Part shown: one piece after another, positions 1,531 to 56,100 of the stretch
Position numbering within the stretch: the first letter of the stretch is position 1
Layout: the number at the start of each line of letters is the position of its first letter
Source: a virus
Strand: one strand, 5' to 3'
Virus record (IMG/VR): IMGVR_UViG_3300037189_027540
Span: 1 to 64,000 of that record
DNA: 64,000 nt
Made by a program: the position numbers and the translations under genes
Notes under the pieces: model-generated
Told to the model about the DNA's origin: nothing
The model's input: the letters and a program-made list of their open reading frames with translations, nothing else
Database searches by the model: none

Positions 1531-2480
1531 GATTTTCCATCCCTTATGAATTCAAAAGTAGCCTTGCCAGCGAATCGCATTGAATAATCTTGATTAAACG
1601 CAAGAGATTTAGCGAAGCCGCCATAATTGTCCAATACGAAACGGATTTTGAATTCTAGATCTGCTTCGTCACTAAAATAGATGAATGATTCGCGCGGCAA
1701 GAATTTTTCGACGATATTCCATCTATCGCGCTTAATTAACAAGACATTCTTGCAATATAAGGCCTCAAATAATCTACATTTTAACTGACAGATAATAGGA
1801 TTATCTAAGCTTAACCCGTCGAAAGCTTGATTCGCCTGCCAATCCCTCATCTGGCAAATATTCGAAATATGCTCAGGCTTTAACGCACATTGATTATAAA
1901 CGACCGTTATTTTGCTGCTAGCCGCCAATTGCAATTTGTCATGATGACTGAGGCCGACGTCAGTCACGAACGGCATGCGATACAAATATGAAATCCGATG
2001 GTTAAACATGCGCATAACTGTAGCCATCTTTTGATGGCAATCACCATGGATCCCGCCAAAATAACAGACATCGATCGATTTCCTGAAATCCAACGGCGCA
2101 CCATTATAATCCTCAGGTGGCGCAAAAGGATGCCAAATTAGCTTATACTTCTGTTCACCCGTAAATCTCTGCTGATAATTGATTGTATATGGGCATATGC
2201 TGTAAATCTCATCAAAATATTCATATAGCCCTCCATCAGGAACATAGGGTGTTGCCTGCTCAATAAATTGACTAGGTGCGCAATATTCTGTCGGCTGCCA
2301 CAAATTCAAGAGCACTTTGCGCTGATAATCTTTATACTCGTCACGCAGTTTACCATTAAATAACGATTGATAACCGTAGAACAATACCTCTTTGCTGCTA
2401 CCTGTACTGAACCTTGTAAGATTTATCTTAACCGTTGGTCCATCTGCGTAGTCGCCACTACTATCAGTTACTACCCGCAT
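1524..2480 (-). CDS. Glycosyltransferase family 1-like protein
   Basis: The C-terminal half reads like a GT-B fold glycosyltransferase of the Glyco_trans_1_2 type: KCRLFEALYCKNVLLIKRD (about 233-251) is the usual sugar-nucleotide-proximal helix and strand, followed by EKFLPRESFIYFSDEADLE. The N-terminal half has no obvious motif. It lies between an SDR epimerase (10-nt overlap) and a methyltransferase (7-nt overlap), all on the minus strand, which fits a small glycan-building operon. Donor and acceptor cannot be inferred. Confidence 0.65.
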   Translation of the reverse strand: MRVVTDSSGDYADGPTVKINLTRFSTGSSKEVLFYGYQSLFNGKLRDEYKDYQRKVLLNLWQPTEYCAPSQFIEQATPYVPDGGLYEYFDEIYSICPYTINYQQRFTGEQKYKLIWHPFAPPEDYNGAPLDFRKSIDVCYFGGIHGDCHQKMATVMRMFNHRISYLYRMPFVTDVGLSHHDKLQLAASSKITVVYNQCALKPEHISNICQMRDWQANQAFDGLSLDNPIICQLKCRLFEALYCKNVLLIKRDRWNIVEKFLPRESFIYFSDEADLEFKIRFVLDNYGGFAKSLAFNQDYSMRFAGKATFEFIRDGKSC

Positions 2481-3280
2481 AGTTTTTCCTTGATAGCTAG
2501 TATGCCTTCCTCTAAAGCGATAGTTGGTCGCCAGATCTTCAAGATGTCGTCACAAGGCATAATGGGCTCACCTGGTAGCTGGTCAGCTGCTTTATCAGCG
2601 AAATACACTGGTACCTTTCCGAACAAATCCGAAACTATCATGGCGACTTCAAAAACGCTGGTCCAAACGAAACTCGTAATATCGACAGTGCTATTACTGT
2701 AGTTTTTCGACAAAAGATGAAAGGCCCGTGCACAGTCCGTAGCATGTAGGAACTGTCTTGTCTCCAGCCCATTAGTCCTCACTCGTATGGCCTTATTGTC
2801 CCGGGCTTGCGTGATGAAATCAGTTATAACGTGGGCCTTTTCATCAGCTTCCTCGACGCCATAAACGTTATAAAGTTTAGCCACCATCCCACCCAGAGCT
2901 CTCGTGTAGTGAGCACCCGCATTCTTTAAGGCCCCGTATGCCGAAGATGTATACTGAGATAGCTGGGATGAGACGAAGATGAACTGCTTATCGTGCAGCA
3001 GCGGGAACACTGTGTTCATAATCTTCATATTATTCTGCATGAACTGTGCGCTGTTCTGATGCATTTGAAGATATTTAGAACCGCCGACATCATAGGCCAG
3101 AAATATCACGAAATCTGATTTAGCTATCGCCGAGTCCAGTAAATCTGACCTAGTGCGTAAATCGAATTCTGGGCCGTCTTTGATGTCGAATTTGAGGACA
3201 TCTTCGCCCTTTGAATTTAAATATTGGACGAGCGGAGCGCCGATTTGCCCAGCCGATCCAAGTACGAGGTAAGTCGCCAA
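2471..3280 (-). CDS. NAD-dependent epimerase/dehydratase (SDR family)
   Basis: An extended-SDR nucleotide-sugar enzyme, likely an epimerase or dehydratase. The Rossmann motif GSAGQIG (GxxGxxG) is at residues 8-14, an acidic residue after the second strand (FDIKDG) indicates NAD binding, and the catalytic YxxxK is seen as YGALK after FVSSQLSQYTSSA. The family usually runs 300-340 aa, so 269 aa is short, and the C-terminal substrate domain looks reduced. Translation appears to start at TTG 3280 with GGAGG about 8 nt upstream. It is first in a minus-strand operon with a glycosyltransferase and a methyltransferase. Confidence 0.8.
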   Translation of the reverse strand: MATYLVLGSAGQIGAPLVQYLNSKGEDVLKFDIKDGPEFDLRTRSDLLDSAIAKSDFVIFLAYDVGGSKYLQMHQNSAQFMQNNMKIMNTVFPLLHDKQFIFVSSQLSQYTSSAYGALKNAGAHYTRALGGMVAKLYNVYGVEEADEKAHVITDFITQARDNKAIRVRTNGLETRQFLHATDCARAFHLLSKNYSNSTVDITSFVWTSVFEVAMIVSDLFGKVPVYFADKAADQLPGEPIMPCDDILKIWRPTIALEEGILAIKEKLCG

Positions 3281-3343
3281 TTGTTTGCCTCCATTGCTTC
3301 TTCTTATCTATTGGAGGAGTTAAATATTAAAGTTAGGAGGGAA

Positions 3344-4237
3344 GTGGCCATCAAGCGGATACTTTTTTTCTTCGAAGATCGTTATGCATTTGGCACTATT
3401 CACAATGGCTTGTCTAAGGAGCTTTATAAGCATGGCATCTTAGCTGAATTGATCAACTGGAATGTACCTTATACGCAGACAGAGATGACTAGCTTCATAG
3501 AATTATATGATTTTGTGATGACTATTCCATCAGCCTATCAGGCACTTAAACACTATGGTGTTCCTGATGACAAGATAATCTTATGTGGCCATGGTGAAGA
3601 GGATCTCATCAAAGCTGTATCGATGCACGGGACGACTATGTTTAATCGGATCGGTGGATATACAGTCGTATCCCAGCTGCTAGTTCAAAGATCATTAGAG
3701 TTTGGCATCCCACGCATTCCAACATTGACCCAGATAGGGATAATGACTAAAAGTTTCTATACTAGATTAAGCAATCGCTTGTCTAATGTTGGATATGCCG
3801 CAGCGATGTCCGTCAGAAACGTGTTCGGTGTGGAGATAAAACGTGGTGAATTAGTTGCAAAATGCTGCGATGAGATAAATTTACCATTTGTCCGTCCAGG
3901 ATTGAGGCATTTTTTGGGCATGCCTCAATTTTATCGCACCGTTGACTGCGTGGTGATGTCCTCGACCGAAGAGACCGTTGGGCTCCCTATTATGGAGGCG
4001 GCGGCTGCAGGCAGGCTTGTGATAGGGACAAGAGTGGGACACTTTAAAGACCATGATTACGGAATCAAAGTCAGTCTGCAGCCTGAACTATTTGTACAAG
4101 AGGTCGTAAGGGCACTGCATCATTATCATAACCACCCCGACGATTATTTGCAGGCGTGCCGTAAGATACAGGATTATGCTATGGCACACTTTGACTGGTC
4201 ACAGTGCATTGGGCCTTGGGTAAAAATGCTATCGTAA
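3344..4237 (+). CDS. Glycosyltransferase, GT-B type (paralogue of the gene at 38335-39225)
   Basis: A 297-aa protein with the C-terminal signature VVMSSTEETVGLPIMEAAAA, equivalent to the EX7E region of GT4-like enzymes that contacts the nucleotide sugar. It is clearly related along its whole length to the minus-strand protein at 38335-39225: both open with a strand ending in AFG and share LSKELYKHG/LIKELYKHG and CSSTEETVGLP-type blocks. I place the start at GTG 3344 after AGGAGG (3335-3340), because the paralogue begins at the equivalent residue; the in-frame ATG at 3224 would overlap the divergent epimerase gene. The SD spacing is short (3 nt). Confidence 0.75.
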   Translation: MAIKRILFFFEDRYAFGTIHNGLSKELYKHGILAELINWNVPYTQTEMTSFIELYDFVMTIPSAYQALKHYGVPDDKIILCGHGEEDLIKAVSMHGTTMFNRIGGYTVVSQLLVQRSLEFGIPRIPTLTQIGIMTKSFYTRLSNRLSNVGYAAAMSVRNVFGVEIKRGELVAKCCDEINLPFVRPGLRHFLGMPQFYRTVDCVVMSSTEETVGLPIMEAAAAGRLVIGTRVGHFKDHDYGIKVSLQPELFVQEVVRALHHYHNHPDDYLQACRKIQDYAMAHFDWSQCIGPWVKMLS

Positions 4238-4262
4238 TGAGGATCTGGACTTATTTGAAGTC

Positions 4263-4272
4263 GAATATATAA
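4263..4272 (+). promoter_or_regulatory. Candidate late-type promoter box GAATATATAA
   Basis: The ten bases GAATATATAA lie about 70 nt upstream of the virion protein gene at 4345. The same ten bases occur at 47451 upstream of the sigma operon, and close variants occur at 24116 and 27022. T4-type late promoters are a single AT-rich -10 box recognised by a gp55-like sigma, and a gp55-like gene is present at 59625. The assignment is an inference from recurrence and position. Confidence 0.35.
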
Positions 4273-4344
4273 AAGACTATGGTTTTTAAAAGATAGATAC
4301 GCAAAAGAAATAACGTTTTCTTTATCGATCAGAAGGAAATGGCA

Positions 4345-6156
4345 ATGCCTAATATCAACACGTCAAACATCCCGCCAGCTCCGGCTCCTGGCACATTGTT
4401 TAACACGTTAGCTAATGATTCAGATTTGAGTATCAGATGGTTGACTGCGGTTGATCCTGCTTTCTATGAGATCATTAATAGACCAATGGCTGACATTGCT
4501 GTACGCCAGCTGGTTGTAGCCAAGGCTGTCGATAACCTTACAGCTCGGACCGGCGCTCAGTATTTCTTCCCATTTCGGATAAACCCGATCGTCACTCACG
4601 GCACCAGTGTTTTCAATGTCCCTCTAGGCTGGCTATATGACTTCAGTGCGTCTTTGCCATCCAAGTGGAAAGATTTACGATTAAAAGCCATCGAACGCAT
4701 TGGAGAGACGACCAGCACTGCCACATTGCGGTTATACTTAAGTGCAGCGGACATCTCTGACGCCACCAGCAATAATGACATAATAATATTTTACTGCGAC
4801 TACGATATCTATTGCGGTCTTACCTACCAAAGATTAGAACTGACAGCTGCGTCTAACGATATTGCTGCTATTGAAGCACGCTTCGGTGCAGGCAGTGCGT
4901 TACCAGCTGACGAAGCTGCGACCGTTTCTGGTTACGTGACATTTGCCACATTAGACTTGTCTGAACTGGCAAATCAGCAATTTATCGATTTTTTAGCCGA
5001 ACCAACGGGCACGTCACCGGCTGTCTACGAAATCGCTGCAACCGCATCGGGCAACACCGTCATTGGACGCGGCGCATGTGTATCAGGTAGCATCGACAAC
5101 GGCACTGGTCTTTTAACAGATAGTGCTTGGAATTCAGTCGGCAACGTTAGTAGCACTATTCAGACTTGGCTTGAAACATTTAATTACCCTTACTATAGCG
5201 ACTCCACATTGCAGACCGAAGCTGGTCTAACGATGCCCAAGGGGATGTTCAGCCAATTCAGCGTCGCAGTCCCAGCTGGAGATTTGCCATCTGGTGCTGC
5301 AACCTCAAGCAGATTCTATCCGGTTTGGATCAGGTCAGTGACCCGAACTGGTGACACGACTTTGCTATTCACTCTTGCGACTTATAGCATAGTGGATGCT
5401 AACGTCAATGGCATACCTTCTACGACGCCGGTCGACTTCGCTACGTTCACACTAATAACGCCAGCAGCTCCTACTACAGGCGTCACGTCTCCTGGGTCAT
5501 TGATACCAATCACACCGATTAACAATCTCTTGCAAAAGCCGAGTGCTGCATCACCTAATGACCCGAGCTTTAGCCAGGAGTTCGGCCGCGGGCAGATAGA
5601 ATTAAGCAATATGTGGGCTGACGGCTATAACGGTGACATCATCCAATTCTTCACCTTGGCCTTTAATCAGCTAGCTACTAACCAGTCTGACGTGTTTCCT
5701 ATCACAGCTGCACGCCTTAGCACTTATGGCACCGTCAGAAGCCCAAAGTACTCGCCCACGCAAGGTCAATTCTATGCTTTGGCTGGTTCAACCGCTCGCC
5801 GTACAACGCAATTGACTAATGATCCGCTTAATCCAAGTAATGACAATCGTTTCATCACCGAAAACGATCAAGGATTAGGTGACAGGATTGACTTCTCGAC
5901 CACAAGTGGGATCCTGCAACACAATGCGATCGATCGTTACGGTTACCGTGGAGGTCTAGCTCACCGTGTCGTACAGCTAGTAGTCGATAGCACCAGCACT
6001 CCAAATGCTGATGCCACTTTCTACAACAACTACATTCTACCTCGCTTGCGCATCTTACTAGGTAACGGTGGAGCTCCGAGAGATCCACGCTTTGCCGATT
6101 ATTGGTACAATGGCACTCGATTATTCTTTTTCAATGGTAACTCTTGGCAAGGGTAA
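4345..6156 (+). CDS. Putative virion structural protein, about 603 aa
   Basis: A large Ser/Thr/Ala/Asn-rich protein without membrane segments or catalytic motifs, of the composition usual for tailed-phage virion proteins. The N-terminus is Pro-rich (SNIPPAPAPG). The C-terminus ends in an aromatic-rich stretch (FADYWYNGTRLFFFNGNSW). I prefer the second ATG (4345) because AAGGA at 4333-4337 gives normal 7-nt spacing; an in-frame ATG at 4339 is too close to it. No specific T4 counterpart could be assigned. It is preceded by a promoter-like A/T box, consistent with late expression. Confidence 0.6.
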   Translation: MPNINTSNIPPAPAPGTLFNTLANDSDLSIRWLTAVDPAFYEIINRPMADIAVRQLVVAKAVDNLTARTGAQYFFPFRINPIVTHGTSVFNVPLGWLYDFSASLPSKWKDLRLKAIERIGETTSTATLRLYLSAADISDATSNNDIIIFYCDYDIYCGLTYQRLELTAASNDIAAIEARFGAGSALPADEAATVSGYVTFATLDLSELANQQFIDFLAEPTGTSPAVYEIAATASGNTVIGRGACVSGSIDNGTGLLTDSAWNSVGNVSSTIQTWLETFNYPYYSDSTLQTEAGLTMPKGMFSQFSVAVPAGDLPSGAATSSRFYPVWIRSVTRTGDTTLLFTLATYSIVDANVNGIPSTTPVDFATFTLITPAAPTTGVTSPGSLIPITPINNLLQKPSAASPNDPSFSQEFGRGQIELSNMWADGYNGDIIQFFTLAFNQLATNQSDVFPITAARLSTYGTVRSPKYSPTQGQFYALAGSTARRTTQLTNDPLNPSNDNRFITENDQGLGDRIDFSTTSGILQHNAIDRYGYRGGLAHRVVQLVVDSTSTPNADATFYNNYILPRLRILLGNGGAPRDPRFADYWYNGTRLFFFNGNSWQG

Positions 6157-6178
6157 ACCGAATCAGACCAGTAAAACG

Positions 6179-6460
6179 ATGCTGCCTAATTTTCAATCGC
6201 TATGGTTCCTGCTGACGACCACCTTGGCCGTATTCTGTCTCCTTTTGGTGATACGATCAGGAATCACAACGCTGGACCCGGATCAGATTATAGAAACAGA
6301 GCGCAAACGGGTTAAGGACTTGATAAAAGAAGAAATAGCCATTATCTCTTCTTATCCACATGAGGAGCCACTTCCGCTCAGTGATAAGCAATTCTATCAG
6401 ATTCAAGCATTACTAAACCTGGAACTTAAAATTGCGAAGTCTAACCGAAGCATTCAATGA
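6179..6460 (+). CDS. Small single-pass membrane protein
   Basis: A 93-aa protein with one hydrophobic segment (FLLTTTLAVFCLLLVI, about residues 9-24) followed by a charged, probably helical domain. This N-in/C-out layout resembles i-spanins or other small phage membrane proteins, but no lysis gene lies nearby, so function stays open. The start is uncertain: ATG 6179 is used here, while the frame is open further upstream and overlaps the preceding gene. Its 3' end overlaps the next gene by 29 nt. Confidence 0.5.
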   Translation: MLPNFQSLWFLLTTTLAVFCLLLVIRSGITTLDPDQIIETERKRVKDLIKEEIAIISSYPHEEPLPLSDKQFYQIQALLNLELKIAKSNRSIQ

Positions 6461-7046
6461 TGTTTATCGCAATCGATCTTGGGGTGACGAAGAGTCCCTT
6501 TCAGGTCTGGGATCAACGCAACTATTCGCCAACAGCTTCTTAACTAATCTAGAAGGAATAATACGACAATATGACGTAACCTCTATCGCTGATTTATCGT
6601 GTGGCGACTGTAACTGGATTAGGCAGATTTTTGGTAAAGTCGATTATTGTGGTTACGATGTTTCTGACCTCATCATTAAGATTAACAGGACTAAATACGA
6701 AGATTGCCGCACGAGCTTCCGTCATCTTGAGATCTTGGAAGCACTAAAACGACCTAAGCTACATGAACTATGCATCATCCGACATACATTCGAACACTTA
6801 CCTACCTCTTATGTCACGGAATGTCTGTCGCTACTCAAGTTTAAGACAAAGTTTGCCTTGATTACCTCAGCTAATTATCACGACGGCAAGCCTGAAGAAA
6901 TAGACTTCGGCGCCAATTCGAGAGAGATCAATTTATTAAAATCGCCTTTCTTTGACATCCTTGGCCTGCCTGCACAGACGTTCTGGGACACGATCGGCAC
7001 AAGGTCTGACCGAGGTTGCTTCGGACACCTTTATCAATTCTGTTAA
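6432..7046 (+). CDS. Class I SAM-dependent methyltransferase, 204 aa
   Basis: The segment IADLSCGDCNWIRQIF (about residues 52-67) is a SAM-binding motif I in the style of small phage and polysaccharide-locus methyltransferases, followed by the strand YCGYDVSD (acidic motif II) and IIRHTFEHLPTSYV, which resembles motif IV/post-IV. The acceptor is unknown. Translation seems to begin at TTG 6434 or nearby (frame from 6432). Its stop interlocks with the convergent gene through TTAA at 7043-7046. The Cys-rich motif I (CGDC) is unusual but occurs in this subgroup. Confidence 0.65.
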   Translation: MRSLTEAFNDVYRNRSWGDEESLSGLGSTQLFANSFLTNLEGIIRQYDVTSIADLSCGDCNWIRQIFGKVDYCGYDVSDLIIKINRTKYEDCRTSFRHLEILEALKRPKLHELCIIRHTFEHLPTSYVTECLSLLKFKTKFALITSANYHDGKPEEIDFGANSREINLLKSPFFDILGLPAQTFWDTIGTRSDRGCFGHLYQFC

Positions 7047-7490: not shown

Positions 7491-8594
7491 ATGTCTAAGT
7501 ACATCGTGTTTGAAGGGGCGGATGGCGCTGGTAAGTCGACCTTGATCGAAGCCGTTAAGGCCGTCATCGGATCGGATGCGGTTACGATTGCTCAACCCGG
7601 GGGCACTCGGCTTGGCGATCTAATCAGAGACTTAGTGAAGTATCCAAGCAAATACAATGTCACCATAGATGATCACACGAGGCAAGCCTTTTATCAGCTC
7701 GACAACGACATTACAATGCGTCAAATCGTGATCCCTGCTCTGGAGGCAGGCAAGACGGTTCTATCAGATCGGTGTACCCATATTAGCAGCTGGATTTATG
7801 GTGCCTCTGACGGAGTCACGCAAGAACGCCTAGGAGTGCTTCGGAGATTAGCTCCAATCGTGCCTGTAACCATCTGTTTCATCTTGGATCTCCCAGCTGC
7901 CGTTGGTCAAGAGCGGGCCAAATCCGCCAGAGCCAATCTAGATCATTACGACAGCAAGCCACTAGTCTTCTACGAATCGCTACGAGAAAGATACCGCAGT
8001 TTGCAAATGGGAGCGGCAGATGAGGCCTTGCATGGTACTATATCAGGATCTGACGTAATCATGCTAGACGCCACCAAGCCAACAGACGAATTGTGCGCTG
8101 AGGTGATAGATCACATCGCCGCTCATAAGCGTCATCTTAACGTAAATCGAGCAACATCCAACGATGTCGTCACCTTATGCGCCAAGCGGACCGTAGGCGA
8201 CGCCATTTTACCATCACGCAAGCGCAAGACAGACGCTGGATGGGACATCTATGCTTGCGAAGATGTCCGATTGATGCCAGGTGTATCAACAATTGTACAG
8301 ACTGGCTGCGTGGTAGCTGCGCCAGCTGGCTGGTACATTACTATCGAAGGGCGTTCTTCTATGTGGTCCAAAGGCATTTTTCCAAATCGAGGTGTCATAG
8401 ACAGTGGATTCACTGGGGACCTCATCGTCAGCCTTGTAAATACCACAGCTGACGTTTATCAGATCAAGAGGGGCGACAGGATCGCCCAATTACTGGTGCA
8501 CCGTCACCACCCTACGATTATCGCTGAAGTGGACGAGTTCCCGGAAGAGTACATCATACGTGGTAATCGCGGTTTCGGCTCAACAGGGAGATAA
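7491..8594 (+). CDS. Bifunctional thymidylate kinase-dUTPase fusion
   Basis: Residues 1-210 are a thymidylate kinase (dTMP + ATP to dTDP): the P-loop EGADGAGKST is at 8-17, the DR motif at 93-94 and a basic lid-like stretch (QERAKSARANLDHYD) at 140-154. Residues about 225-367 are a trimeric-type dUTPase (dUTP to dUMP + PPi) with all five motifs: DAGWDIYA (248-255), EGRSSM (286-291), GVIDSGFTGDL (301-311), GDRIAQL (328-334) and RGNRGFGSTG (357-366). Both halves look intact. dUTPase makes dUMP, ThyX (50643-51422) turns it into dTMP, and the kinase acts next, so the fusion joins two non-consecutive steps of one pathway. Confidence 0.92.
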   Translation: MSKYIVFEGADGAGKSTLIEAVKAVIGSDAVTIAQPGGTRLGDLIRDLVKYPSKYNVTIDDHTRQAFYQLDNDITMRQIVIPALEAGKTVLSDRCTHISSWIYGASDGVTQERLGVLRRLAPIVPVTICFILDLPAAVGQERAKSARANLDHYDSKPLVFYESLRERYRSLQMGAADEALHGTISGSDVIMLDATKPTDELCAEVIDHIAAHKRHLNVNRATSNDVVTLCAKRTVGDAILPSRKRKTDAGWDIYACEDVRLMPGVSTIVQTGCVVAAPAGWYITIEGRSSMWSKGIFPNRGVIDSGFTGDLIVSLVNTTADVYQIKRGDRIAQLLVHRHHPTIIAEVDEFPEEYIIRGNRGFGSTGR

Positions 8595-18587: not shown

Positions 18588-20096
18588 ATGGATCAGCTAG
18601 TAGAGAAGTTACCAGAGTTGCAAGCCAAAATTGAGTCCTACAGGAATGTACTTGGGAGCGGACTTGGTATGAAGTGGGTGAACGGATTACCCACAGACCA
18701 ACCTGCCATCATCGTATTTGTTCAAGAAAAATATGACCTAGAAAATGAATTCTTTGCCCATGCCGCAGATACGCTCGTGCCAAGTGAGATCGATGGCATC
18801 AAGACTGACATAATATCAGTCGGACACTTAATTCCACACATCAGGGCGCAACTCGAAACTGATAATAAAGAATACTGCGCAAAGAAAAGACCTTTGACTC
18901 CCGGCTACAGCATAGCACACGGATCAGTGTCAGCTGGGACCCTAGGTGGATTTTTCGTAGATAAGGATTATGAGCTAGTCATATTAAGCAACAGTCACGT
19001 CCTAGCCCATGAAGGAAAAGCCAAAGCTGGAGATCTGATTTACCAGCCCGGACCAGCTGACGGCAATCAAGTTATACAATTTGCTGGCTGGAATCAGCCA
19101 ACGGCCGATATCCCATATGTGGCAAGCTTAAAAGATTTTGTACCGTTCGCTGACACTAATACTCAAGACAGCGCTATCGCCAAAATACCACATGAATTAT
19201 TTGCAGCAGGTATCGTTAATCCGATCTACCCGAAAATGAATAAACCCATTGGGGGTGTCACAGACGCAGCTGTCGGCTTAAGCCTGCAGAAAGTGGGTCG
19301 GACCACAGGTTACACTGTTGGCAAAATATTAGCTACGGGTGCGTCTTTCACCATCCAATATGAATGTGGCGCAGTTAAATTCGAAAATGTGATAGTCACC
19401 AGCGCTATGAGTGCCCCAGGTGACAGCGGATCGTTAGTATTCGACACAGATATGAATATGGTAGGATTGCTTTTCGCTGGTAGTGCAAGAGTCACCCTAT
19501 TAAATCCTATCAGACCAGTACTAGAACGCTACGGTTTGCAGCCTTATAGAGGCGGCCCCATATTGCAAAGCTTCTCGGCAAACGCTGGCTGGATAGCTTC
19601 TTCGAACAGACCCAACGCTATCCAGCGTAATGGAGACTTAGTCTTAATAGATTCTTGCGCCAATGAGTACGCCTTCATTGAACATATCGTCGAAGGTGTG
19701 ACGAAGGTATCAGTGAGTATCAACACAGGAACTGACACAGGAAGCCTATTAGGGCCTGGCATCACCATTCGTTACCAAGAGGGATACATCACATTGAACC
19801 TCCGACACAATTGCTGCTACGGTTTTACCATGAATGATCAAGAATATCTTAACATGGGTAGAGTAAAGCCTGACACATCTTATCACCTCTCTGTAGAGGA
19901 AATCGGCGAAAAGATCATTGGTAAGATTACTGCAGATGAACGTGATGTTGAGGTCTTTAATATTCCAAAAGCTCTATTCCCTTCAAAAGCAAATAAAGTG
20001 CGCATAGGCAAAGTGGGGGCAACAGGCGGTGCGTTCAATGGCTCAGACCTTGGTGAACCTGGTCAATGCAGTTTATCGAACATTTGTACGATATAA
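18588..20096 (+). CDS. Trypsin-like serine protease with C-terminal beta domain
   Basis: Residues about 105-315 form a chymotrypsin-fold protease. A candidate triad is visible: His137 in VILSNSHVLA, Asp194 in TQDSAIAKI and Ser280 in APGDSGSLVF, with GDSG intact. No signal peptide is seen. The C-terminal about 170 residues are beta-rich (YAFIEHIVEGVTKVSVSINT, GYITLNLRHNCCYGF) and resemble a LamG/jelly-roll carbohydrate-binding domain. Preceded by GGG about 9 nt upstream of the ATG. The role may be virion maturation, host surface digestion or processing of the neighbouring fibres. The family call is firm; the role is not known. Confidence 0.85.
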   Translation: MDQLVEKLPELQAKIESYRNVLGSGLGMKWVNGLPTDQPAIIVFVQEKYDLENEFFAHAADTLVPSEIDGIKTDIISVGHLIPHIRAQLETDNKEYCAKKRPLTPGYSIAHGSVSAGTLGGFFVDKDYELVILSNSHVLAHEGKAKAGDLIYQPGPADGNQVIQFAGWNQPTADIPYVASLKDFVPFADTNTQDSAIAKIPHELFAAGIVNPIYPKMNKPIGGVTDAAVGLSLQKVGRTTGYTVGKILATGASFTIQYECGAVKFENVIVTSAMSAPGDSGSLVFDTDMNMVGLLFAGSARVTLLNPIRPVLERYGLQPYRGGPILQSFSANAGWIASSNRPNAIQRNGDLVLIDSCANEYAFIEHIVEGVTKVSVSINTGTDTGSLLGPGITIRYQEGYITLNLRHNCCYGFTMNDQEYLNMGRVKPDTSYHLSVEEIGEKIIGKITADERDVEVFNIPKALFPSKANKVRIGKVGATGGAFNGSDLGEPGQCSLSNICTI

Positions 20097-20447
20097 CGCT
20101 CTGCAATAAATAGTGCCAGATGGTGCTGCTGTTATCATTTTAGCTCTGACATATTGTGCTAGCGCACCAGTATATGCTGCTGGCTCATTAGCTTCATTAA
20201 CCTCTCTCCAGGCCGCAGTTACATCTAGGCCGAACGGTTTATAGTATCCGTCTGGCAACAAGTACTTTTGGTCTGCACTAGATATAGTTATTGCTACAGG
20301 TGAAATATTTGGATCATCGAATTCCCCAGTACAAAATACACATAAGATTGGGCTACGACTCTTTATAAACGTTGGCATGGTGTCATATGGGATAATCGGC
20401 AAAATCTTTCTGATTTCGAAGTACGACCACTCTTCAGGATTATTCAC
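20073..20447 (-). CDS. Hypothetical protein, 124 aa
   Basis: A small protein with no recognised family. It has a Tyr/Pro-rich middle (LLPDGYYKPFGLDV) and a helical C-terminal part. The likely start is GTG 20447. Its 3' end overlaps the protease gene by 24 nt in the convergent orientation. Size and composition would suit a small virion protein, but nothing in the sequence proves it. Confidence 0.55.
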   Translation of the reverse strand: MNNPEEWSYFEIRKILPIIPYDTMPTFIKSRSPILCVFCTGEFDDPNISPVAITISSADQKYLLPDGYYKPFGLDVTAAWREVNEANEPAAYTGALAQYVRAKMITAAPSGTIYCRALYRTNVR

Positions 20448-20513
20448 CGTTATGATCCCATGTTTTAAGGTATGACAATGATTACTCCGTAACTATATTC
20501 GCCGCTGTATTGG

Positions 20514-20521
20514 AATAAATA
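20514..20521 (+). promoter_or_regulatory. Late-promoter-like octamer AATAAATA
   Basis: AATAAATA lies about 50 nt upstream of the nuclease gene at 20572 in a 124-nt gap between divergent genes. It matches the T4-like late promoter core (NATAAATA). A chance match in an AT-rich gap is possible, so confidence is low. Confidence 0.3.
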
Positions 20522-20571
20522 GCATGTATCACCTCAATTTGAACATAAGTAAGTGACTATCTAGGGTGTAT

Positions 20572-21477
20572 ATGTTGAAACAGTTCGATCATATTCAGTA
20601 TAACGATGACCTCCATGCTTACCGCTCAAATGGAAAACTGTTAAGGTCGGTGACGCAAATAATTGCTGCCAAGATCAAGCAGCCATTCGACACTGAAGCA
20701 ATCAGCGCTAAAGTCGCTAAAAAACAAGGTAGGACTATAGCTGAAGTGCAGGCTGAATGGGAGCGAAAAGGCTTAATAGGACGTAACAAAGGCACCCAAA
20801 CGCATAACTACATCGAGTTAAAGCTTAATAAGTCTTCAGAAACGCTAATTGAAGCAGATGAGCATGTACCCATAGAATGTAAAGCGTTCGATAAATTTTG
20901 GACTAGATTCTCTAAAGACAAAAAGGCACGCTGCTTGATTCAAGAATGGCCCATCGGTGACGCAGAATGGGGAATTGCTGGCAAATTGGACACAGTGCTA
21001 GAATTAACTGAAGATAATATTTCAAACAATTATATTTTCGACTGGAAAACGGGTAAATTCGAAACATTCAGCGGATTTAATACTTTAAAGGCACCATTCG
21101 ATGATTTAGATGAGAACCAACTGAACATATATTCGATACAAGTCAGTTTATATCGCTTGTTGCTCGATAAACATACTGATCTTAACATAAAAGATAGTTA
21201 CTTGGTGCACTTGTCGGCAGATGGCGCATACAAAGTGCACAAGGCCCTAGACTTTAGAACAAGATTAGCTGAATGGCTTAAATGTAATGGCCATAGCTTC
21301 GTCGACGAGACTCAATGTGCTCGTTATGATCAAATGGCCACCTACATACGCAATAATATTATGAAGGATAAACAACGACTAACATACGACACAGTTGATA
21401 ACCTGCTAAATATGTGCGGCGTTATAGTAGATATGCTTCATTCAGAGCAGGCCGCTTTTAAATGGTCTAAACGTTAA
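20572..21477 (+). CDS. PD-(D/E)XK nuclease (RecB/Cas4-like exonuclease)
   Basis: A DNA exonuclease candidate of the PD-(D/E)XK superfamily. Visible elements in order: GTQTH (residues 74-78, the GxxxH motif of RecB/Cas4-type enzymes), GIAGKLDTVLE with catalytic Asp140, FDWKTGK with Asp157 and Lys159, and a Q-rich helix QLNIYSIQVSLY (183-194) equivalent to motif QxxxY. No Cys cluster for an Fe-S site is seen, so it is not a typical Cas4. I start at ATG 20572 with AGGG five nt upstream. A strong hairpin follows the stop. The likely role is phage DNA recombination or host DNA degradation. Confidence 0.8.
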   Translation: MLKQFDHIQYNDDLHAYRSNGKLLRSVTQIIAAKIKQPFDTEAISAKVAKKQGRTIAEVQAEWERKGLIGRNKGTQTHNYIELKLNKSSETLIEADEHVPIECKAFDKFWTRFSKDKKARCLIQEWPIGDAEWGIAGKLDTVLELTEDNISNNYIFDWKTGKFETFSGFNTLKAPFDDLDENQLNIYSIQVSLYRLLLDKHTDLNIKDSYLVHLSADGAYKVHKALDFRTRLAEWLKCNGHSFVDETQCARYDQMATYIRNNIMKDKQRLTYDTVDNLLNMCGVIVDMLHSEQAAFKWSKR

Positions 21478-27021: not shown

Positions 27022-27039
27022 GAAATATATACTAGGAGG
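27022..27039 (+). promoter_or_regulatory. A/T box plus AGGAGG leader of the peptide gene
   Basis: GAAATATATA (27022-27031) is followed by AGGAGG (27034-27039) and ATG at 27045. The same arrangement precedes the 24139 gene. The near-perfect ribosome binding site predicts strong translation of the small peptide gene, as is common for RiPP precursors. The promoter role of the A/T box is inferred. Confidence 0.4.
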
Positions 27040-27044
27040 TGAAC

Positions 27045-27308
27045 ATGAATAGTTTATTAGAAAAATACGGATTTAGCAGTGAGGAAATGGCTGAGCTAGG
27101 GCTAAGAGTTTATACGATAGAAGAGATAAGAGCAAAAACCAGCGCACCCCATGCTTACAAAATGGGGAGCTTAGTGGGTCCTGGTCCTGCAGCTACTCCA
27201 GGCTTTTGCGACAATACGAAATTAGAGGTTGATGACGATGCTCATATGGATGTATCATGTGTTTGTAGCCTGAATTTAGGCGAAGTGCTCTGCAGTCAAG
27301 TGTCTTAA
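27045..27308 (+). CDS. Candidate RiPP precursor peptide, 87 aa
   Basis: Probably a ribosomally made peptide that is modified by the radical SAM protein encoded next to it. The N-terminal half (residues 1-32) is a charged amphipathic leader-like helix (SSEEMAELGLRVYTIEEIRA). After a Gly/Pro-rich hinge (GSLVGPGPAATPG, 41-53) comes a Cys-bearing acidic C-terminus with Cys55, Cys72, Cys74 and Cys83, which would be the core. I use ATG 27045, five nt after AGGAGG; an in-frame GTG at 27039 lies inside that site. The radical SAM gene starts three bases after its stop. No known precursor family is recognised, so the call rests on layout and composition. Confidence 0.6.
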   Translation: MNSLLEKYGFSSEEMAELGLRVYTIEEIRAKTSAPHAYKMGSLVGPGPAATPGFCDNTKLEVDDDAHMDVSCVCSLNLGEVLCSQVS

Positions 27309-27310
27309 GT

Positions 27311-28492
27311 GTGCTTAATGTTGAACTGCAAGGGCTTGCTAATCAAATGACCAAGTATAGTCGATATGTTAAAATCAATCACGGAAATCAAGACACATTG
27401 GCATGCACCGTCCAAGGGATCCATTTACCAATGGATGCTTCGGAGGACACGCTCTCTCGTAATTCGATGCTAGCAGGTCAAGAAGCTACGGCACTACGAA
27501 ATAAATTGTTTAAATCTGATGTCGCTAAAATAACGATTATCCCGACATGGGGGTGCAACCTGCGTTGCAGGCATTGCGTTGTGATCGATAAATTAGAACG
27601 AGGAAGCGATAGTGATCTAAACTGTGAACAATTAGTCACGTTTTTGGAAAAGTTTAGTGTCAACGCCAAGTTGAAACGAGCTTGCTTTGTAGGTGGTGAG
27701 CCGCTGCTGAGGCCTGATATTCTATTAAAACTAACAAAAGCGTTGCCCGGCTGGATGTTTTCGATGACCACTAATTTATCAATTCCGTTCACTGAAACAC
27801 ATTATGAATTATTCGACCATATTAGTTCCATCACCGTCAGTGTTGACGGCTTACCGAAAAACCATAACAGGCAAAGGATACCTCTTAATAAAGATCCAGA
27901 CATATTCGGCAAGACAGTCGATAACATCAAACAGTTAGTGCGGCGTGGCCTAAAGGATAAATTGTCAGTGCAAGGGGCAGTCGATCAAGTCAATAAAGAT
28001 GATGAGATAGCTTATAAGCATTTTTTCTGTAACTTGGGGCTAAACCCACTAGCTATATTTTACGGTCTAATCCATCCACACCCGCGTGGCGAATCTCCCA
28101 CAGGTTTTATAGAAGCTCTAAAGCAAATGCCAATAAATTATAGGCCCTGCTGTAAGTATCAGCCTGGCACGCAATGCACGATCCTTCCTGACAATAGCAT
28201 AGTTAGTGACTTCTATACTCAAACGCCAATCGGCACCATTTTCGACGAACCAGCGGCCGTTATAGAGAATCACAGACGACTAGTACTTAATACGATGCCA
28301 GTTTTAAATGACCCAACGTGTCGTGAATGTGACGTAATCGGATTGTGCTGGGGGCATTGCAGCAACGGTGAACCGGTAACTGGCATGCTACCTAGTAAAT
28401 ATTGTGATCAAGCCGGTTTGCGAACTAGAGTTCATAACCTAGCGCTCGCTGGCTCACTAGTAGTTCAAGGATCGCCAGCATGCTCGCCTTGA
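27311..28492 (+). CDS. Radical SAM/SPASM peptide maturase
   Basis: The SAM-cleaving cluster motif CNLRCRHC (Cys82, Cys86, Cys89) is canonical CxxxCxxC, followed by GGEP (128-131) and SVDG (177-180). The C-terminus has a SPASM region: Cys280/281 and Cys289, then CRECDVIGLCWGHC, an exact CX2CX5CX3C (337-350), and a final Cys365. This organisation is typical of enzymes that cross-link RiPP precursors. The region before the cluster (about 16-70) may bind the precursor leader. It starts at GTG 27311 right behind the peptide gene, so it is probably translationally coupled. The exact chemistry (thioether, C-C bond or epimerisation) cannot be read from the sequence. Confidence 0.85.
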   Translation: MLNVELQGLANQMTKYSRYVKINHGNQDTLACTVQGIHLPMDASEDTLSRNSMLAGQEATALRNKLFKSDVAKITIIPTWGCNLRCRHCVVIDKLERGSDSDLNCEQLVTFLEKFSVNAKLKRACFVGGEPLLRPDILLKLTKALPGWMFSMTTNLSIPFTETHYELFDHISSITVSVDGLPKNHNRQRIPLNKDPDIFGKTVDNIKQLVRRGLKDKLSVQGAVDQVNKDDEIAYKHFFCNLGLNPLAIFYGLIHPHPRGESPTGFIEALKQMPINYRPCCKYQPGTQCTILPDNSIVSDFYTQTPIGTIFDEPAAVIENHRRLVLNTMPVLNDPTCRECDVIGLCWGHCSNGEPVTGMLPSKYCDQAGLRTRVHNLALAGSLVVQGSPACSP

Positions 28493-28830
28493 TTTTTAAT
28501 GATGGATCGCTAAGTAATAAAGCCATTAAAGAAGAATTCAATGCAGCTAATGAAGTGTCGCTTGCGCAGCTAGAAATAGGATCCTTGACTCTTATCCCCA
28601 TCTTTTGGGATGTGGCCACAGCCGATCGGTTCGTACGCCGCAATGGCCTGTTTATGGTCATTAGCGGGATGGTCAATTTAGCGCAAGAAGATGTAGATAA
28701 GCTCAGCAAGGAGTCAGCTTGCAGTATACTTGAATATCCTAATAAAGTTAATAAGATAGCGAAGAAGGTGTCTGGTTATAAGTTTCAATTAGCTACTAAA
28801 ATTCAACCTGTAGACAAATTGCTAGTATGA
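28480..28830 (+). CDS. Hypothetical protein in the radical SAM cluster, 116 aa
   Basis: A small soluble protein with a helical N-terminus (SNKAIKEEFNAANEVSLAQL) and a strand-rich middle containing LFMVISGMVNL. No family is recognised. It overlaps the radical SAM gene by 13 nt and the nuclease gene by 4 nt, which places it firmly in the same transcript. It could be a recognition, immunity or unrelated protein; nothing in the sequence decides. Confidence 0.6.
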   Translation: MLALIFNDGSLSNKAIKEEFNAANEVSLAQLEIGSLTLIPIFWDVATADRFVRRNGLFMVISGMVNLAQEDVDKLSKESACSILEYPNKVNKIAKKVSGYKFQLATKIQPVDKLLV

Positions 28831-29450
28831 TCGAACCCTTCAGCGCCATCGTGCAAGGCACAGTCGAATACGATGGTCGTGCTATTAGCAAAACTAGACT
28901 TGGGATATACTTGGTCATAGTAAAGCCAGATTTATCGATTCAAATCCATAGTAACACTAAGAACAAACCTATAAATTATATCAATGCTAAAAGCGTTGAA
29001 CTAAATGCTGATCAGTGGATCTTTAAAAGCAAAGATGAACAGATCAAGGTTAACATTAGTAACGTAATAGAAAAAATGTCGCTTGCCCTTCTAACTGGGG
29101 TAGAGAAAAAGGTCTCAAAAACTGAGCAAGATCTGGTCGATAAATTAATCAGCTCTATGGCAATTCATATCCAAGGGCATTTGTATATCGAACCGCAATA
29201 CCCTACGGTGGTAGGCCCGATCGACATTGTGTGCATCGATAACGAGTCCAAGTTGATACATGTGATCGAGGCAAAACGCCGTAAGCCCAGTGTGAATGCA
29301 ATTTACCAGCTTAAACGATACATTGACCATATTCACATAGAAGGTTATGAGAAGAAAGGCTATTTGGCAGCACCTGAATTTAGCGAAAAGCACGATGTAT
29401 TGATGGAGAAGTTCGGTTTCAATAAGCTGCTAGTCACTTTTGAGGATTAA
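28827..29450 (+). CDS. NucS/EndoMS-like endonuclease
   Basis: Resembles the archaeal and actinobacterial mismatch-specific endonuclease NucS (EndoMS). The N-terminal domain has the family pattern VEYDGRAISKTRLGIYLVIV then IHSNTKNKPINYINA (about residues 13-54), matching the Y-x-GR...RL...VHS...P-N-W region. The C-terminal RecB-like nuclease domain shows GPIDIV (Asp133), VIEAKR (Glu148, Lys150) and QLKRYID (Gln161). At 207 aa it is somewhat shorter than cellular NucS (about 250 aa). It may cut mismatched or branched phage DNA or host DNA. It overlaps its upstream neighbour by 4 nt and ends two bases before the metallopeptidase gene. Confidence 0.8.
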   Translation: MIEPFSAIVQGTVEYDGRAISKTRLGIYLVIVKPDLSIQIHSNTKNKPINYINAKSVELNADQWIFKSKDEQIKVNISNVIEKMSLALLTGVEKKVSKTEQDLVDKLISSMAIHIQGHLYIEPQYPTVVGPIDIVCIDNESKLIHVIEAKRRKPSVNAIYQLKRYIDHIHIEGYEKKGYLAAPEFSEKHDVLMEKFGFNKLLVTFED

Positions 29451-29452
29451 TC

Positions 29453-29974
29453 ATGGGTACCGTGTACTGGAAGGCCGACCAACAAGTCAATGATTTAATC
29501 GCTACAGTCATTCACAAGTATCATTCAGAACTTGGTAAAGCCAATGTTCGCATCGGTACATTAATGGCATTTAATGAGAAAGCACCCCCTGTTAAGCATG
29601 GCGGTTATCAAGCATATGCTACGGTTAGAATCATTAGCTTAAAAGATCGAGTAACGAAAGACCACGATGTCGAAATGTGTATAGATGCAGAGGCATGGAA
29701 GCAATTCACTAGCATGCAAAAAGAAGCTTTAATCGATCACGAATTAAGCCATATTAAATGCAAAAAGAAAAAGGCAAGAGGTCCAGACGGCAAGCCCATC
29801 GAGACAGATGAACTTATGTTTGATGATTTAAGTCGCCCATTGCTCAAATTGATCAAAGCGGACTGGAACGTAGGCGACGGCTTCGCCGATGTGGTATCTA
29901 GGCATAAAGAATCTAGTGTCGAATACGTTAGCATTAACAAGGCTAAAGAATTGGCCGATGCCGCAAGCGCCTAA
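29453..29974 (+). CDS. Putative phage metallopeptidase (HExxH)
   Basis: Contains LIDHELSHIKCKKKK, a zincin HExxH motif (His96, Glu97, His100), in a 173-aa protein of the putative phage metallopeptidase type (PhageMetallopep-like), a family common in large phages and without a defined substrate. A downstream acidic ligand could be in FDDLSRP. It is last in the co-directional cluster that begins with the peptide gene. Cleaving a peptide leader is an attractive role by position, but phage metallopeptidases of this family occur without such neighbours. Its stop interlocks with the convergent gene (CTAA, 29971-29974). Confidence 0.75.
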   Translation: MGTVYWKADQQVNDLIATVIHKYHSELGKANVRIGTLMAFNEKAPPVKHGGYQAYATVRIISLKDRVTKDHDVEMCIDAEAWKQFTSMQKEALIDHELSHIKCKKKKARGPDGKPIETDELMFDDLSRPLLKLIKADWNVGDGFADVVSRHKESSVEYVSINKAKELADAASA

Positions 29975-47173: not shown

Positions 47174-47403
47174 TAGTTTGCAGTCTTCCAAACCTTTAGG
47201 CCAGGTTTATTGCCCGGTACTTTCACATATAACGTGTTAAGCACCGCATGATAGTAATAATCATCGCGATATGTATTAGGGTCTGGTTCGAAAGCCGTAA
47301 TATTCACCATTTTTACACCGAATGGCTGCTGTAACCATACAGTATGGCCAATTGATGATTGTTGGTTACGTATGCTAAGAATAGTCTCAATTTGAGTAGA
47401 CAC
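47173..47403 (-). CDS. Hypothetical small virion-type protein, 76 aa
   Basis: A small protein ahead of the giant adhesin gene on the same strand, sharing TAATG with its start, so the two are translationally coupled. Sequence features are limited: a Tyr-rich middle (DPNTYRDDYYYHAVL) and a basic C-terminus (KPGLKVWKTAN). The start is GTG 47403. It may be an adaptor or chaperone for the adhesin by position only. Confidence 0.55.
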   Translation of the reverse strand: MSTQIETILSIRNQQSSIGHTVWLQQPFGVKMVNITAFEPDPNTYRDDYYYHAVLNTLYVKVPGNKPGLKVWKTAN

Positions 47404-53166: not shown

Positions 53167-53174
53167 GAGTGGCT

Positions 53175-56100
53175 ATGTTAGGTGTGTCAAAAGCGATCAA
53201 CCCACGCGATTATTTTAGCCTTGATGTAAAATTCCTTAAGCAATACGAGGCTAAAAAGCCTAACTTCGGATTCAATGGATTGGGTGAACTTGTATTTTTC
53301 AGGACTTATTCTCGCCTTAAACCAGATGGGTCGAAAGAATCATTCTTTGATTGCATCAAGCGTGTTGTAGAAGGATGCTACGAAATACAACGGCGCCATT
53401 GCGTTTCTTTGCACATCCCATGGAACTTTAAAAAAGCGCAAGAAAGCGCCCAAGAGATGTTTCAGAGGATGTGGGACTTCAAATTCTTACCTCCTGGCCG
53501 CGGACTTTGGATGATGGGCACGGACTTCATGTGGTCTAGACTTGGCGCCGCATTGAATAATTGCTTCGATGGTAAGACAGAGATCATTACTAGAGATGGT
53601 GTTAAACAAATCGGATTGCTGGTAGGCACCGAACAGGAGTTGTTGACTACTGGTGGTAAATGGGTGAAAGCACCAATTAAATCATTTGGTGTACAGGAAT
53701 TATATAAACTGACGCTAGAGCGGGCTGGCGTCCAGAAGATTATCTATACTACTGCGGGCCATCGTTGGTTCGCTAAAGATTTACGTAAAACGCAAACTGT
53801 CGCTATTGAAGATACGTCTGGTGTAATTGTTAAAAAGCGACAGCATATTGGCTATAAAGAAGTAACAACAGTCAACCTGACTGAACATCATATAATGCAA
53901 TCTGTGTATGGCAGTGGTGTCAATGGCAACGTCAGACCTAGTGCTTTTGGTGTTGCGCATGGCATTGCCTATGGTGATGGCACAACTGGTCAAGATTCTG
54001 AATCGTGTGGCACTTATCTCTATCTGTGTGGACATAAAAATGAGGAATTATTAGAATATTTCCCCAATTGCCCTACTTCGTTCGATAAGGAAAAGGGCGT
54101 TGAAGGGGCAGTTAGAGTAGCTGACTTGCCTAGATTTTTCAGGCGGAAACCGTCTCTACGTGAATCTAAGAGCTATTTATATGGATGGTTGGCTGGATAT
54201 TTTGCAGCTGACGGCACCATCAACACTAAGGGCAATCAGATATGCATAGCTAGTAGCGAATACGATAACATGTTATTAGTGCGTGATGTTTGTGCTGTTC
54301 TTGGCATAGGCACATATTCAATAGTCCAGACTACGCAAACAGTTACCCATGATGGCATCAAGAAAAAATTCATAGGATATAAAATTGGTATTATGCCGAT
54401 CCATCTTAATGAAGACTTCTTTTTGCTTTCTGAGCATAAGAAGCGGTTTTTAGATCATCGTAGCCATCGCGATAGGCCATTATACAAGTGGCATGTTAAG
54501 TCTGTTGAACAGACTGGTGAATTTGCCGAAGTTTATTGTCCGCAAGTCCCAGATACACAGGCTTTTGCACTTGCAGATAACATATTAACTGGCAATTGTG
54601 CATTTATCAGCACTGATGATACCATAGAAGCCGATCCAGCAGAGCCATTCTGTTTTTTGATGGATATGGCGATGCTAGGTGTTGGAGTGGGTTTCGATAC
54701 TAAAGGTAAAGACAGGATCGCTATAAAGAATCCATCTGCTAAAACCGTGGGATATCAAATAGAAGACTCACGTGAAGGTTGGGTAGAGTCATTAAGGATG
54801 CTATTGCATTCTTACACGCTTAAGTATAAAGATGGTAAAGTAAAATTCGATTATTCGCTGATTAGACCAAAAGGTAGCCCCATCAATGGATTCGGTGGCA
54901 CTGCAGCTGGTTCTGGGATCTTGGTGGAGCTGCACAACGCAGTTATCGCATTATTAGATAGCCGAGTCGGTAAAAAACTATCTAGCGTCGATATTACCGA
55001 CATCATGAACATCATTGGTAAATGTGTTGTTGCTGGCAATGTTAGGCGTTGTTTGCCTAAAGGCACATTGGTCCACTTAAAAAGAGGTTTAACACCAATC
55101 GAACAGGTGAGGGTTGGCGATTTAGTGTTAACAGCTGATGGATATTATCCAGTCATTGAGAATGTTAAACAGGGCGTTCAGCGGGTTGTTACTATTAAAA
55201 ATCAGATGGGTAAGTTCAGATGTACTGATCGACACCGCATTGCTATTATGTCTGGTGTTGGAAAATATGAGTGGAAGCGCGCCAAAGAACTAGTTAAAGA
55301 TGATAGGATGGTGTTTGTAGATGCGATAATTCCAGGCGTCACAACTGCACTGCCTAGCGACACCGATGCGTCAACACGCGGTAACCAAATGATCGTGCCT
55401 AATCTAACAACCGATGTGGCGTGGTTTATTGGCGCTATCCATGGTGATGGTTATGTGTATGATGGACGAGCATACAAAGGTCGTAAACACCACGGTTCGT
55501 CTGTCTCCATCTCTGTGAATAGAGATGAATACCATGATGGGATGATCGAAAAAATAAGTACTGGCTTCGCAATGTTTGGATTTACTGCTAGAGAGCAGTC
55601 AAGCCATGATAATAGCCACAAATTACGAGTGACGTCACGAAAATTAGCGTCGTATTTTCACAAAAATTTAAAGACTGCTAAGACACCTCTAGACGTGCCA
55701 GAATTCATTTTGTGTGGTATGCCAGAGATCAGAGCTGCATATTTGGCTGGACTGCTAGATACGGATGGATCTACCAAAAATAGACCTACTGTATTACTGG
55801 CCAGCGTTTATGCCAAATTCATTAAGCAAGTGCAAGCGGTGTATTCAAGCCTTGGAATACCTACAAAGTGTGTGCTTAGAGCTGAAGAAGATGGCACTAA
55901 CCAAGCTAAATGGGAATTACATTTGGTTGGTGAAATGGCGATTTCAAAGTTCAATGAACTTGTTCAACAATATGCTGTTAAGCAATTGCGTGTAATGACT
56001 GGATATAGTGGCCATGACTATGGATTTCCTTCAGCATGGGTTTACAAGAGCACCATCGATTATGGTCGTTCATGGAGTCCGCAGCAAGCACAAATGTCAT

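What the first reader, a model, noticed from the sequence alone, without database searches (positions are those of the whole stretch)
27045..29974. Candidate phage-encoded RiPP biosynthesis cluster with nuclease and metallopeptidase
Seen: a strongly translated 87-aa gene (AGGAGG leader) with a leader-like helix, a Gly/Pro hinge and a Cys-bearing acidic C-terminus (Cys55, 72, 74, 83). It is followed after 2 bases by a radical SAM protein with CxxxCxxC and an exact SPASM CX2CX5CX3C, then three co-directional genes: an unknown protein, a NucS-like nuclease and an HExxH metallopeptidase. Flanking genes run the other way, so the five genes form one unit. Known: SPASM radical SAM enzymes next to small Cys peptides commonly make sactipeptides, ranthipeptides or related cross-linked RiPPs. 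Inference: the phage makes a modified peptide, perhaps acting on the host or on rival phages, with the metallopeptidase as possible leader protease. I know of no described phage system of this layout.
Basis: partly seen in the sequence, partly recalled or inferred. Interest (0 to 1): 0.85.

Follow-up and report, generated by a model that had tools for sequence, protein, structure and literature searches.

The report
Phage two-gene modified-peptide module
A large freshwater-type phage carries a small cysteine-bearing peptide gene next to a radical-SAM enzyme gene that probably cross-links it, and an unrelated large phage carries the same pair, so this looks like a real viral peptide-modifying module whose purpose is unknown.

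Summary
In detail: an 87-aa Cys-bearing ORF (27045-27308, AGGAGG 5 nt upstream) lies directly before a radical SAM/SPASM gene (27311-28492), and three more same-strand genes follow. The RiPP reading is supported, but only for the first two genes. A motif scan of viral contigs found one true relative of the enzyme (35% identity, phmmer 2.4e-62) in an unrelated large phage, L219/G051. There it is followed by two tandem 91-92-aa ORFs with the same leader motif (F[ST]x[EQ]ExxELGL) and a C-terminal Cys cluster. The shared unit is therefore precursor plus maturase. Genes 3-5 are not part of it: NucS and the metallopeptidase occur without the pair in relatives (117 kb apart in one 275-kb phage), gene 3 has a paralogue elsewhere, and all three are missing from G051. 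The metallopeptidase is thus a poor candidate leader protease; no exporter or immunity gene was seen. Both enzymes score best against peptide-maturase models but far below every family cut-off. Phage-borne radical-SAM peptide loci have precedents: SPN3US-like jumbo phages carry CXXX-repeat peptides beside two radical SAM genes. Modification chemistry and function are untested.

The parts
27034..27039 (+). AGGAGG Shine-Dalgarno sequence, 5 nt before the precursor ATG
   Evidence: read directly
27045..27308 (+). precursor peptide gene, 87 aa: leader (about 1-44, motif F10-S-S-E-E-M-A-E-L-G-L20), Gly/Pro hinge (45-53), Cys-bearing acidic C-terminal part (Cys55, 72, 74, 83)
   Evidence: ORF and coding score; leader shared with the two ORFs beside the homologous enzyme in L219: alignment 9-55 against 13-67, shuffle p 0.003-0.015 for the whole ORF and 0.001-0.004 for the leader; no database family
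27311..28492 (+). radical SAM/SPASM enzyme, probable peptide maturase; start may be ATG 27347
   Evidence: Pfam Radical_SAM 2.7e-12; CxxxCxxC, GGEP, CX2CX5CX3C-X14-C; homologue in L219 at 35% identity, phmmer 2.4e-62; model closest to CteB 5why/5wgg, Foldseek 5.9e-12
28480..28830 (+). 116-aa ORF of unknown function; co-oriented with the pair but probably not part of the module
   Evidence: no family; homologue in the same phage species, far from this locus (G002 about 111.8 kb, phmmer 7.1e-8); none in G051
28827..29450 (+). NucS/EndoMS-like nuclease, full length, motif D133...E-A-K...Q; lineage gene, not part of the module
   Evidence: 35-37% homologues in related large phages G010, G011, G018, G026 that show no relative of the radical SAM enzyme
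29453..29974 (+). PF18894 phage metallopeptidase (HELSH); lineage gene, not part of the module
   Evidence: 42-47% homologues in G010 and G018, 117 kb from NucS in G010

Best explanation
Genes 1 and 2 form a phage-encoded RiPP-type module: an 87-aa precursor with an N-terminal leader and a Cys-bearing C-terminal part, and its own radical SAM/SPASM maturase. Shown by computation: the small ORF is coding, is adjacent and co-oriented, and ORFs with the same leader motif sit beside the homologous enzyme in an unrelated phage. Inferred: the enzyme binds the leader and uses a SAM-derived 5'-deoxyadenosyl radical, with auxiliary Fe-S clusters, to install cross-links in the C-terminal part, most likely Cys thioethers (sactipeptide/ranthipeptide type) because Cys is the feature shared by all three precursors. 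As no transporter, dedicated protease or immunity gene accompanies either locus, the product most likely acts inside the infected cell or is released at lysis. Genes 3-5 are ordinary lineage genes that happen to follow in the same direction.
For: Codon score and Shine-Dalgarno of the small ORF. True homologue of the enzyme in L219/G051, phmmer 2.4e-62, 35% identity including the N-terminal 60 residues and all Fe-S Cys. Two tandem small ORFs next to it with the same leader motif; in 1.57 million residues of ORFs scanned the motif occurs only in the window precursor and these two (the motif was drawn from them). G051 shares no NucS, metallopeptidase, gene-3 or terminase homologue, so the pair is the shared unit. 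Best NCBIfam scores are peptide maturases: PapB 56.7 bits, TIGR04463 50.2, CcpM 45.1, HxsB 44.3 for the window; PapB 66.8, HxsB 63.0, sulfatase maturase 62.4 for L219, against 34.4-41.8 for MoaA. L219 passes the SPASM model cut-off (35.4 against 27). Best solved structure by fold and by sequence is CteB.
Against: Only two loci. The precursor similarity is short; BLASTP finds nothing. All family scores are far below curated cut-offs, and viperin or MoaA models lie within 13-15 bits for the window enzyme. No complete leader-binding RRE domain is seen: only about 60 residues precede the barrel, and they are low-confidence in the model. The precursor sits before the enzyme in one phage and after it in the other. 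A Vibrio phage radical SAM gene has a similar-sized upstream ORF without any Cys, so layout alone proves little. The alignment behind the model was rich in SPASM proteins, which biases the fold match.
Confidence: 0.68

Rival explanations
1. The enzyme modifies a small molecule (sugar, nucleotide or cofactor) as part of the glycan/auxiliary-metabolism islands common in such phages, and the small ORF is an unrelated phage gene.
For: Both loci lie among glycosyltransferase or related genes. Other radical SAM genes in the window phage's relatives sit in tandem next to other metabolic-type genes without small Cys ORFs. Non-peptide radical SAM structures (BlsE, viperin) are among the fold matches.
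Against: The radical SAM genes of those relatives lack the CX2CX5CX3C SPASM motif. The small ORF with the same leader motif accompanies the homologous enzyme in an unrelated phage.
Confidence: 0.15
2. The enzyme post-translationally modifies the small protein, but the product is a modified phage protein (virion or regulatory) kept whole, not a RiPP with leader removal.
For: No protease or exporter is tied to the pair. In SPN3US-like phages the comparable locus lies beside virion structural and tail-chaperone genes. A single-sequence model of the precursor gives helices at 4-31 and strands at 54-85, but only at pLDDT 59.
Against: Leader plus hinge plus Cys-bearing tail, and tandem precursors in L219, resemble RiPP precursors.
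Confidence: 0.13
3. The five genes are one functional operon, with the metallopeptidase removing the leader and the nuclease acting together with the peptide.
For: Same strand, with gaps of 2 nt or short overlaps.
Against: NucS and the metallopeptidase are found apart, without the pair, in relatives, and none of genes 3-5 is in G051. PF18894 is a general phage family.
Confidence: 0.04

Closest known systems
PapB-type ranthipeptide maturases (NF047865) and CteB/SCIFF maturases (TIGR03974; PDB 5wgg, 5why)
   Same: radical SAM core plus SPASM, adjacent small Cys-bearing precursor; best family score and best fold match
   Different: scores 57-67 bits against cut-offs of 340 and 425; no CX3D (PapA) or SCIFF Cys pattern in the precursor (read by eye); Asp replaces one usual SPASM Cys; no full RRE recognised
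CXXX-repeat radical SAM loci of SPN3US-like jumbo phages (Erwinia phage Asesino, Salmonella phage SPN3US, pSal-SNUABM-04; TIGR04114/TIGR04115-like)
   Same: phage-borne small peptides with a common leader and Cys-rich C-terminus beside radical SAM genes
   Different: two radical SAM genes, an additional 295-aa gene, CXXX repeats; no sequence similarity of precursors to P1 seen
Biosynthetic clusters carried by phages and prophages (Dragos et al. 2021, cited in PMC12360287; sublancin of phage SPbeta, own knowledge)
   Same: phage-encoded modified peptide
   Different: SPbeta sublancin is a glycocin with its own export genes (own knowledge); no exporter or immunity gene here
NucS/EndoMS endonuclease (PDB 2vld, 5gke)
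   Same: gene 4 has both domains and the PD-(D/E)XK residues
   Different: below the NCBIfam cut-offs (100.9 against 216); not tied to the peptide module

Membership tests
Radical SAM/SPASM enzyme | CxxxCxxC and GGE motif in a radical SAM core | tested here: met
   C82/C86/C89, GGEP 128-131; Pfam 47.6 bits against cut-off 29.5
Radical SAM/SPASM enzyme | seven-Cys SPASM motif | tested here: inconclusive
   CX2CX5CX3C...C present, first Cys (280/281) present, but Asp at the G-x4-C position in both members; L219 passes TIGR04085, while this row was not among the 25 shown for the window enzyme
RiPP system | short precursor gene adjacent to the modifying enzyme, conserved with it | tested here: met
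   present beside both members; only two loci known
RiPP system | conserved leader with a more variable core | tested here: met
   leader alignment, shuffle p 0.001-0.004; C-terminal parts differ; support is modest, three sequences
RiPP system | leader-binding RRE domain or partner | tested here: inconclusive
   conserved N-terminal region of about 60 aa, partly like the strand-hairpin start of RRE-bearing maturases, but shorter and low-confidence
RiPP system | enzymatic modification and leader removal of the precursor | not testable with these tools
   needs co-expression and mass spectrometry
Sactipeptide/ranthipeptide | Cys-to-carbon thioether cross-links | not testable with these tools
   Cys present in the C-terminal parts; chemistry unknown
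PapB (NF047865) | score above curated cut-off 340 | tested here: not met
   56.7 and 66.8 bits
Viperin (pVip) | score above curated cut-off 180 (NF038283) | tested here: not met
   43.2 and 37.5 bits
NucS/EndoMS | NucS N- and C-terminal domains with nuclease residues | tested here: met
   Pfam PF01939 and PF21003 above cut-off; residues aligned to 2vld

The most novel reading that the evidence does not exclude
A lytic-type large phage makes its own radical-SAM-modified peptide during infection, using a two-gene cassette that moves between unrelated phages, and the product acts inside the infected cell (on host physiology, host defence or superinfecting phages) rather than being exported as a bacteriocin.
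Probability: 0.3. Interest if true: 0.82.

Novelty: new variant of a known kind. Interest (0 to 1): 0.6.

Why it matters
Modified peptides made by phages are little explored outside prophage-carried bacteriocins. A minimal precursor-plus-maturase pair without exporter, shared by two unrelated large phages, would point to modified peptides as intracellular tools of infection. It also gives a defined, small system (two genes, about 1.4 kb) that can be tested directly in E. coli. The parallel CXXX-repeat loci in well-studied, culturable SPN3US-like phages make the general question, what phages do with radical-SAM-modified peptides, testable now.

Tried and rejected
Exact-peptide scans for the enzyme, precursor, NucS and metallopeptidase in viral contigs, and the first genome-contig scan, found nothing. 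A two-sequence alignment with a Nocardia plasmid enzyme gave only QueE-type viral hits and distant bacterial SPASM proteins (best E 3e-13). The human-gut 'phage' record MT836237 holds a transposase-like ORF and ABC-transporter and radical SAM genes on a short unverified scaffold; I set it aside as probably bacterial. Absence of the pair in the 99%-identical relatives G002 and G003 was rejected as evidence, because those contigs begin at window positions 47356 and 40394 and do not cover the locus. A family of chance pattern matches was discarded: of 40 contigs matching the DNA pattern only L219 encodes a radical SAM protein with the motif. The last viral scan added only QueE proteins. A shared glycosyltransferase-like neighbour was tested and not found. 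No promoter or terminator above shuffle expectation; no tRNA or Rfam match. Viperin-like defence was rejected on score and on the presence of SPASM.

Full report
Setting. The window is 1-64000 of a 67,598-base IMG/VR virus record. It carries a terminase (weak Pfam match), a ribonucleotide reductase fused or interrupted in a 1463-aa ORF, a helicase, ThyX, a thymidylate kinase-dUTPase fusion, a sigma factor and several glycosyltransferases. Its terminase is 99% identical in three other viral contigs and about 60% identical in contigs of up to 275 kb, so this is most likely a fragment of a large phage.

Observation. The 87-aa ORF is coding by codon usage. Two corrections concern the enzyme: its start is ambiguous (GTG 27311 or ATG 27347), and its SPASM motif has Asp300 where a Cys is usual. 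From own knowledge, that position is normally a ligand of the first auxiliary cluster; an Asp ligand is known in PqqE, so loss of activity need not follow.

Is the small ORF tied to the enzyme? Standard searches found no relatives of either protein. The nearest bacterial SPASM proteins are only about 25-31% identical over the core, and the viral hits of the first alignment-based scan were QueE proteins. I therefore scanned viral contigs with a DNA pattern for PxCx2Cx5CWGxC taken from this enzyme's SPASM region. Of 40 matching contigs one, L219 (record G051, 112,804 bases), encodes a true homologue: 435-aa open frame, phmmer 2.4e-62, 197 bits. The two enzymes are 35% identical and share the N-terminal region, all radical SAM and SPASM Cys, the CCKY motif and the Asp (SD[FY]Y). 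Directly after the L219 enzyme lie two tandem ORFs of 92 and 91 aa (5439-5717 and 5726-6001), 74 of 92 aligned positions identical to each other. Each has a leader containing YFTEQERKELGL and a tail YCYCGFCKPESGINGTC. The window precursor has FSSEEMAELGL in the same place and ends its hinge in GFC. Local alignment 9-55 against 13-67 scores above shuffles with p 0.015 and 0.003 (whole ORF) or 0.004 and 0.001 (leader part). BLASTP on the pair gives no hit, so this is modest evidence on its own. It gains weight because the comparison was between ORFs already singled out by adjacency to homologous enzymes. The motif itself, drawn from these sequences, occurs nowhere else in 1.57 million residues of ORFs from all fetched DNA.

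Is the second locus a phage? G051 encodes UvsX, a DnaB-type helicase, two DNA polymerase-like ORFs, an SbcC-like exonuclease subunit, NAD-dependent ligase and a PurZ-like adenylosuccinate synthetase. It has no match to the window's terminase, and apart from the enzyme it shares only a GDPD-like ORF and a small repeated family with the window. The pair is therefore shared by two unrelated large phages.

Genes 3-5. In the 275-kb relative G010, a NucS homologue (36%) lies at 173.0-173.6 kb beside an SbcC-like gene, and the metallopeptidase (42%) at 56.3-56.8 kb; there is no homologue of P1 or P2. NucS is also in G011, G018 and G026, the metallopeptidase in G018. A gene-3 homologue lies far away in G002, the same species by terminase identity. 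None of the three is in G051. They are lineage genes, and the metallopeptidase is not a supported leader protease. The close relatives G002 and G003 cannot tell whether the pair is variable, because their contigs do not reach the locus.

What the enzyme resembles. NCBIfam ranks PapB ranthipeptide maturases first for both members, followed mostly by other peptide or protein modifiers, all far below cut-off. The AlphaFold2 model (pLDDT 70.7, pTM 0.71) is closest to CteB, then anSME, SkfB, SuiB and ChlB, with the non-peptide enzyme BlsE also near. A two-sequence profile again finds CteB first. The N-terminal region looks too short for a full RRE and is modelled with low confidence. I therefore call it a peptide-modifying SPASM enzyme of a new small family, not a member of a named one.

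How it would work (inferred). The leader is recognised, the Cys-bearing tail enters the barrel, and one or more cross-links form, most likely thioethers. Without exporter, protease or immunity gene at either locus, action inside the infected cell or release at lysis is more likely than secretion as a bacteriocin. Both loci lie in regions with glycosyltransferase genes, but no neighbour was shown to be shared next to the pair, so this may only reflect the phages' gene-rich accessory islands.

Precedent. While checking phage radical SAM genes I found that SPN3US-like phages (66 records with the peptide, 63 with a radical SAM gene covering at least 80% of the query) carry small peptides ending in ...SHYNCGGSCSWTCSGGCS... 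and, in some, long CXXX repeats, beside two radical SAM genes. One of those enzymes matches the CXXX-repeat maturase model at 3.9e-35, below its cut-off. A search for SPN3US plus radical SAM in the open library returned one paper, which concerns another phage. Conversely, Vibrio phage nt-1 has an 89-aa ORF without Cys directly before a radical SAM gene, and the window phage's relatives carry several radical SAM genes with neither SPASM motif nor Cys peptide. Layout alone is thus not proof.

Verdict. A probable precursor-maturase pair, confidence 0.68; new variant of a known kind; function unknown, with intracellular action the most likely guess.

Noticed in passing
L092 (NC_031107.2) 1573-5434; L093 2043-5404; L097; L099: SPN3US-like jumbo phages (Asesino, SPN3US, pSal-SNUABM-04, Wellington and others) carry Cys-rich or CXXX-repeat small peptides with a shared leader (phrog_6085) beside two radical SAM genes and a conserved 295-aa gene (phrog_8030), annotated mostly as hypothetical; one Salmonella record calls the enzyme AlbA.
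   Followed up: partly
L094 3932-5323 (Prevotella phage Lak-B2): A radical SAM gene is followed by a 166-aa ORF ending YYDDYSSGGCGNTYGSPYHHWSGGC, another possible peptide-modifying pair.
   Followed up: no
window 28827-29450; G010 173016-173630: Full-length NucS/EndoMS-like nuclease genes occur in this lineage of large aquatic phages, in G010 beside an SbcC-like gene.
   Followed up: partly
L098 1960-2169 and L099 1981-2190: The 69-aa peptide in Cronobacter phage CR5 and Erwinia phage Wellington has lost most C-terminal Cys (ends SWTSSGGAKAVTWPS / SWSSSGGAKSVSFPS) while keeping the leader, next to intact radical SAM genes.
   Followed up: no
G051 96557-97741 (L259 16557-17741): PurZ-like adenylosuccinate synthetase (phrog_1211, 9.3e-43), hinting at modified-base DNA in the phage that carries the second copy of the module.
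   Followed up: no
window 53169-57560: 1463-aa ORF matching ribonucleotide reductase in separate stretches, with a helicase-like profile match in between; possibly inteins.
   Followed up: no
G042 2858-6938 (L199, L204, L206); G026 19755-20827: Tandem radical SAM genes without SPASM CX2CX5CX3C in related large phages.
   Followed up: partly
window 7491-8594: Thymidylate kinase and dUTPase domains in one ORF.
   Followed up: no
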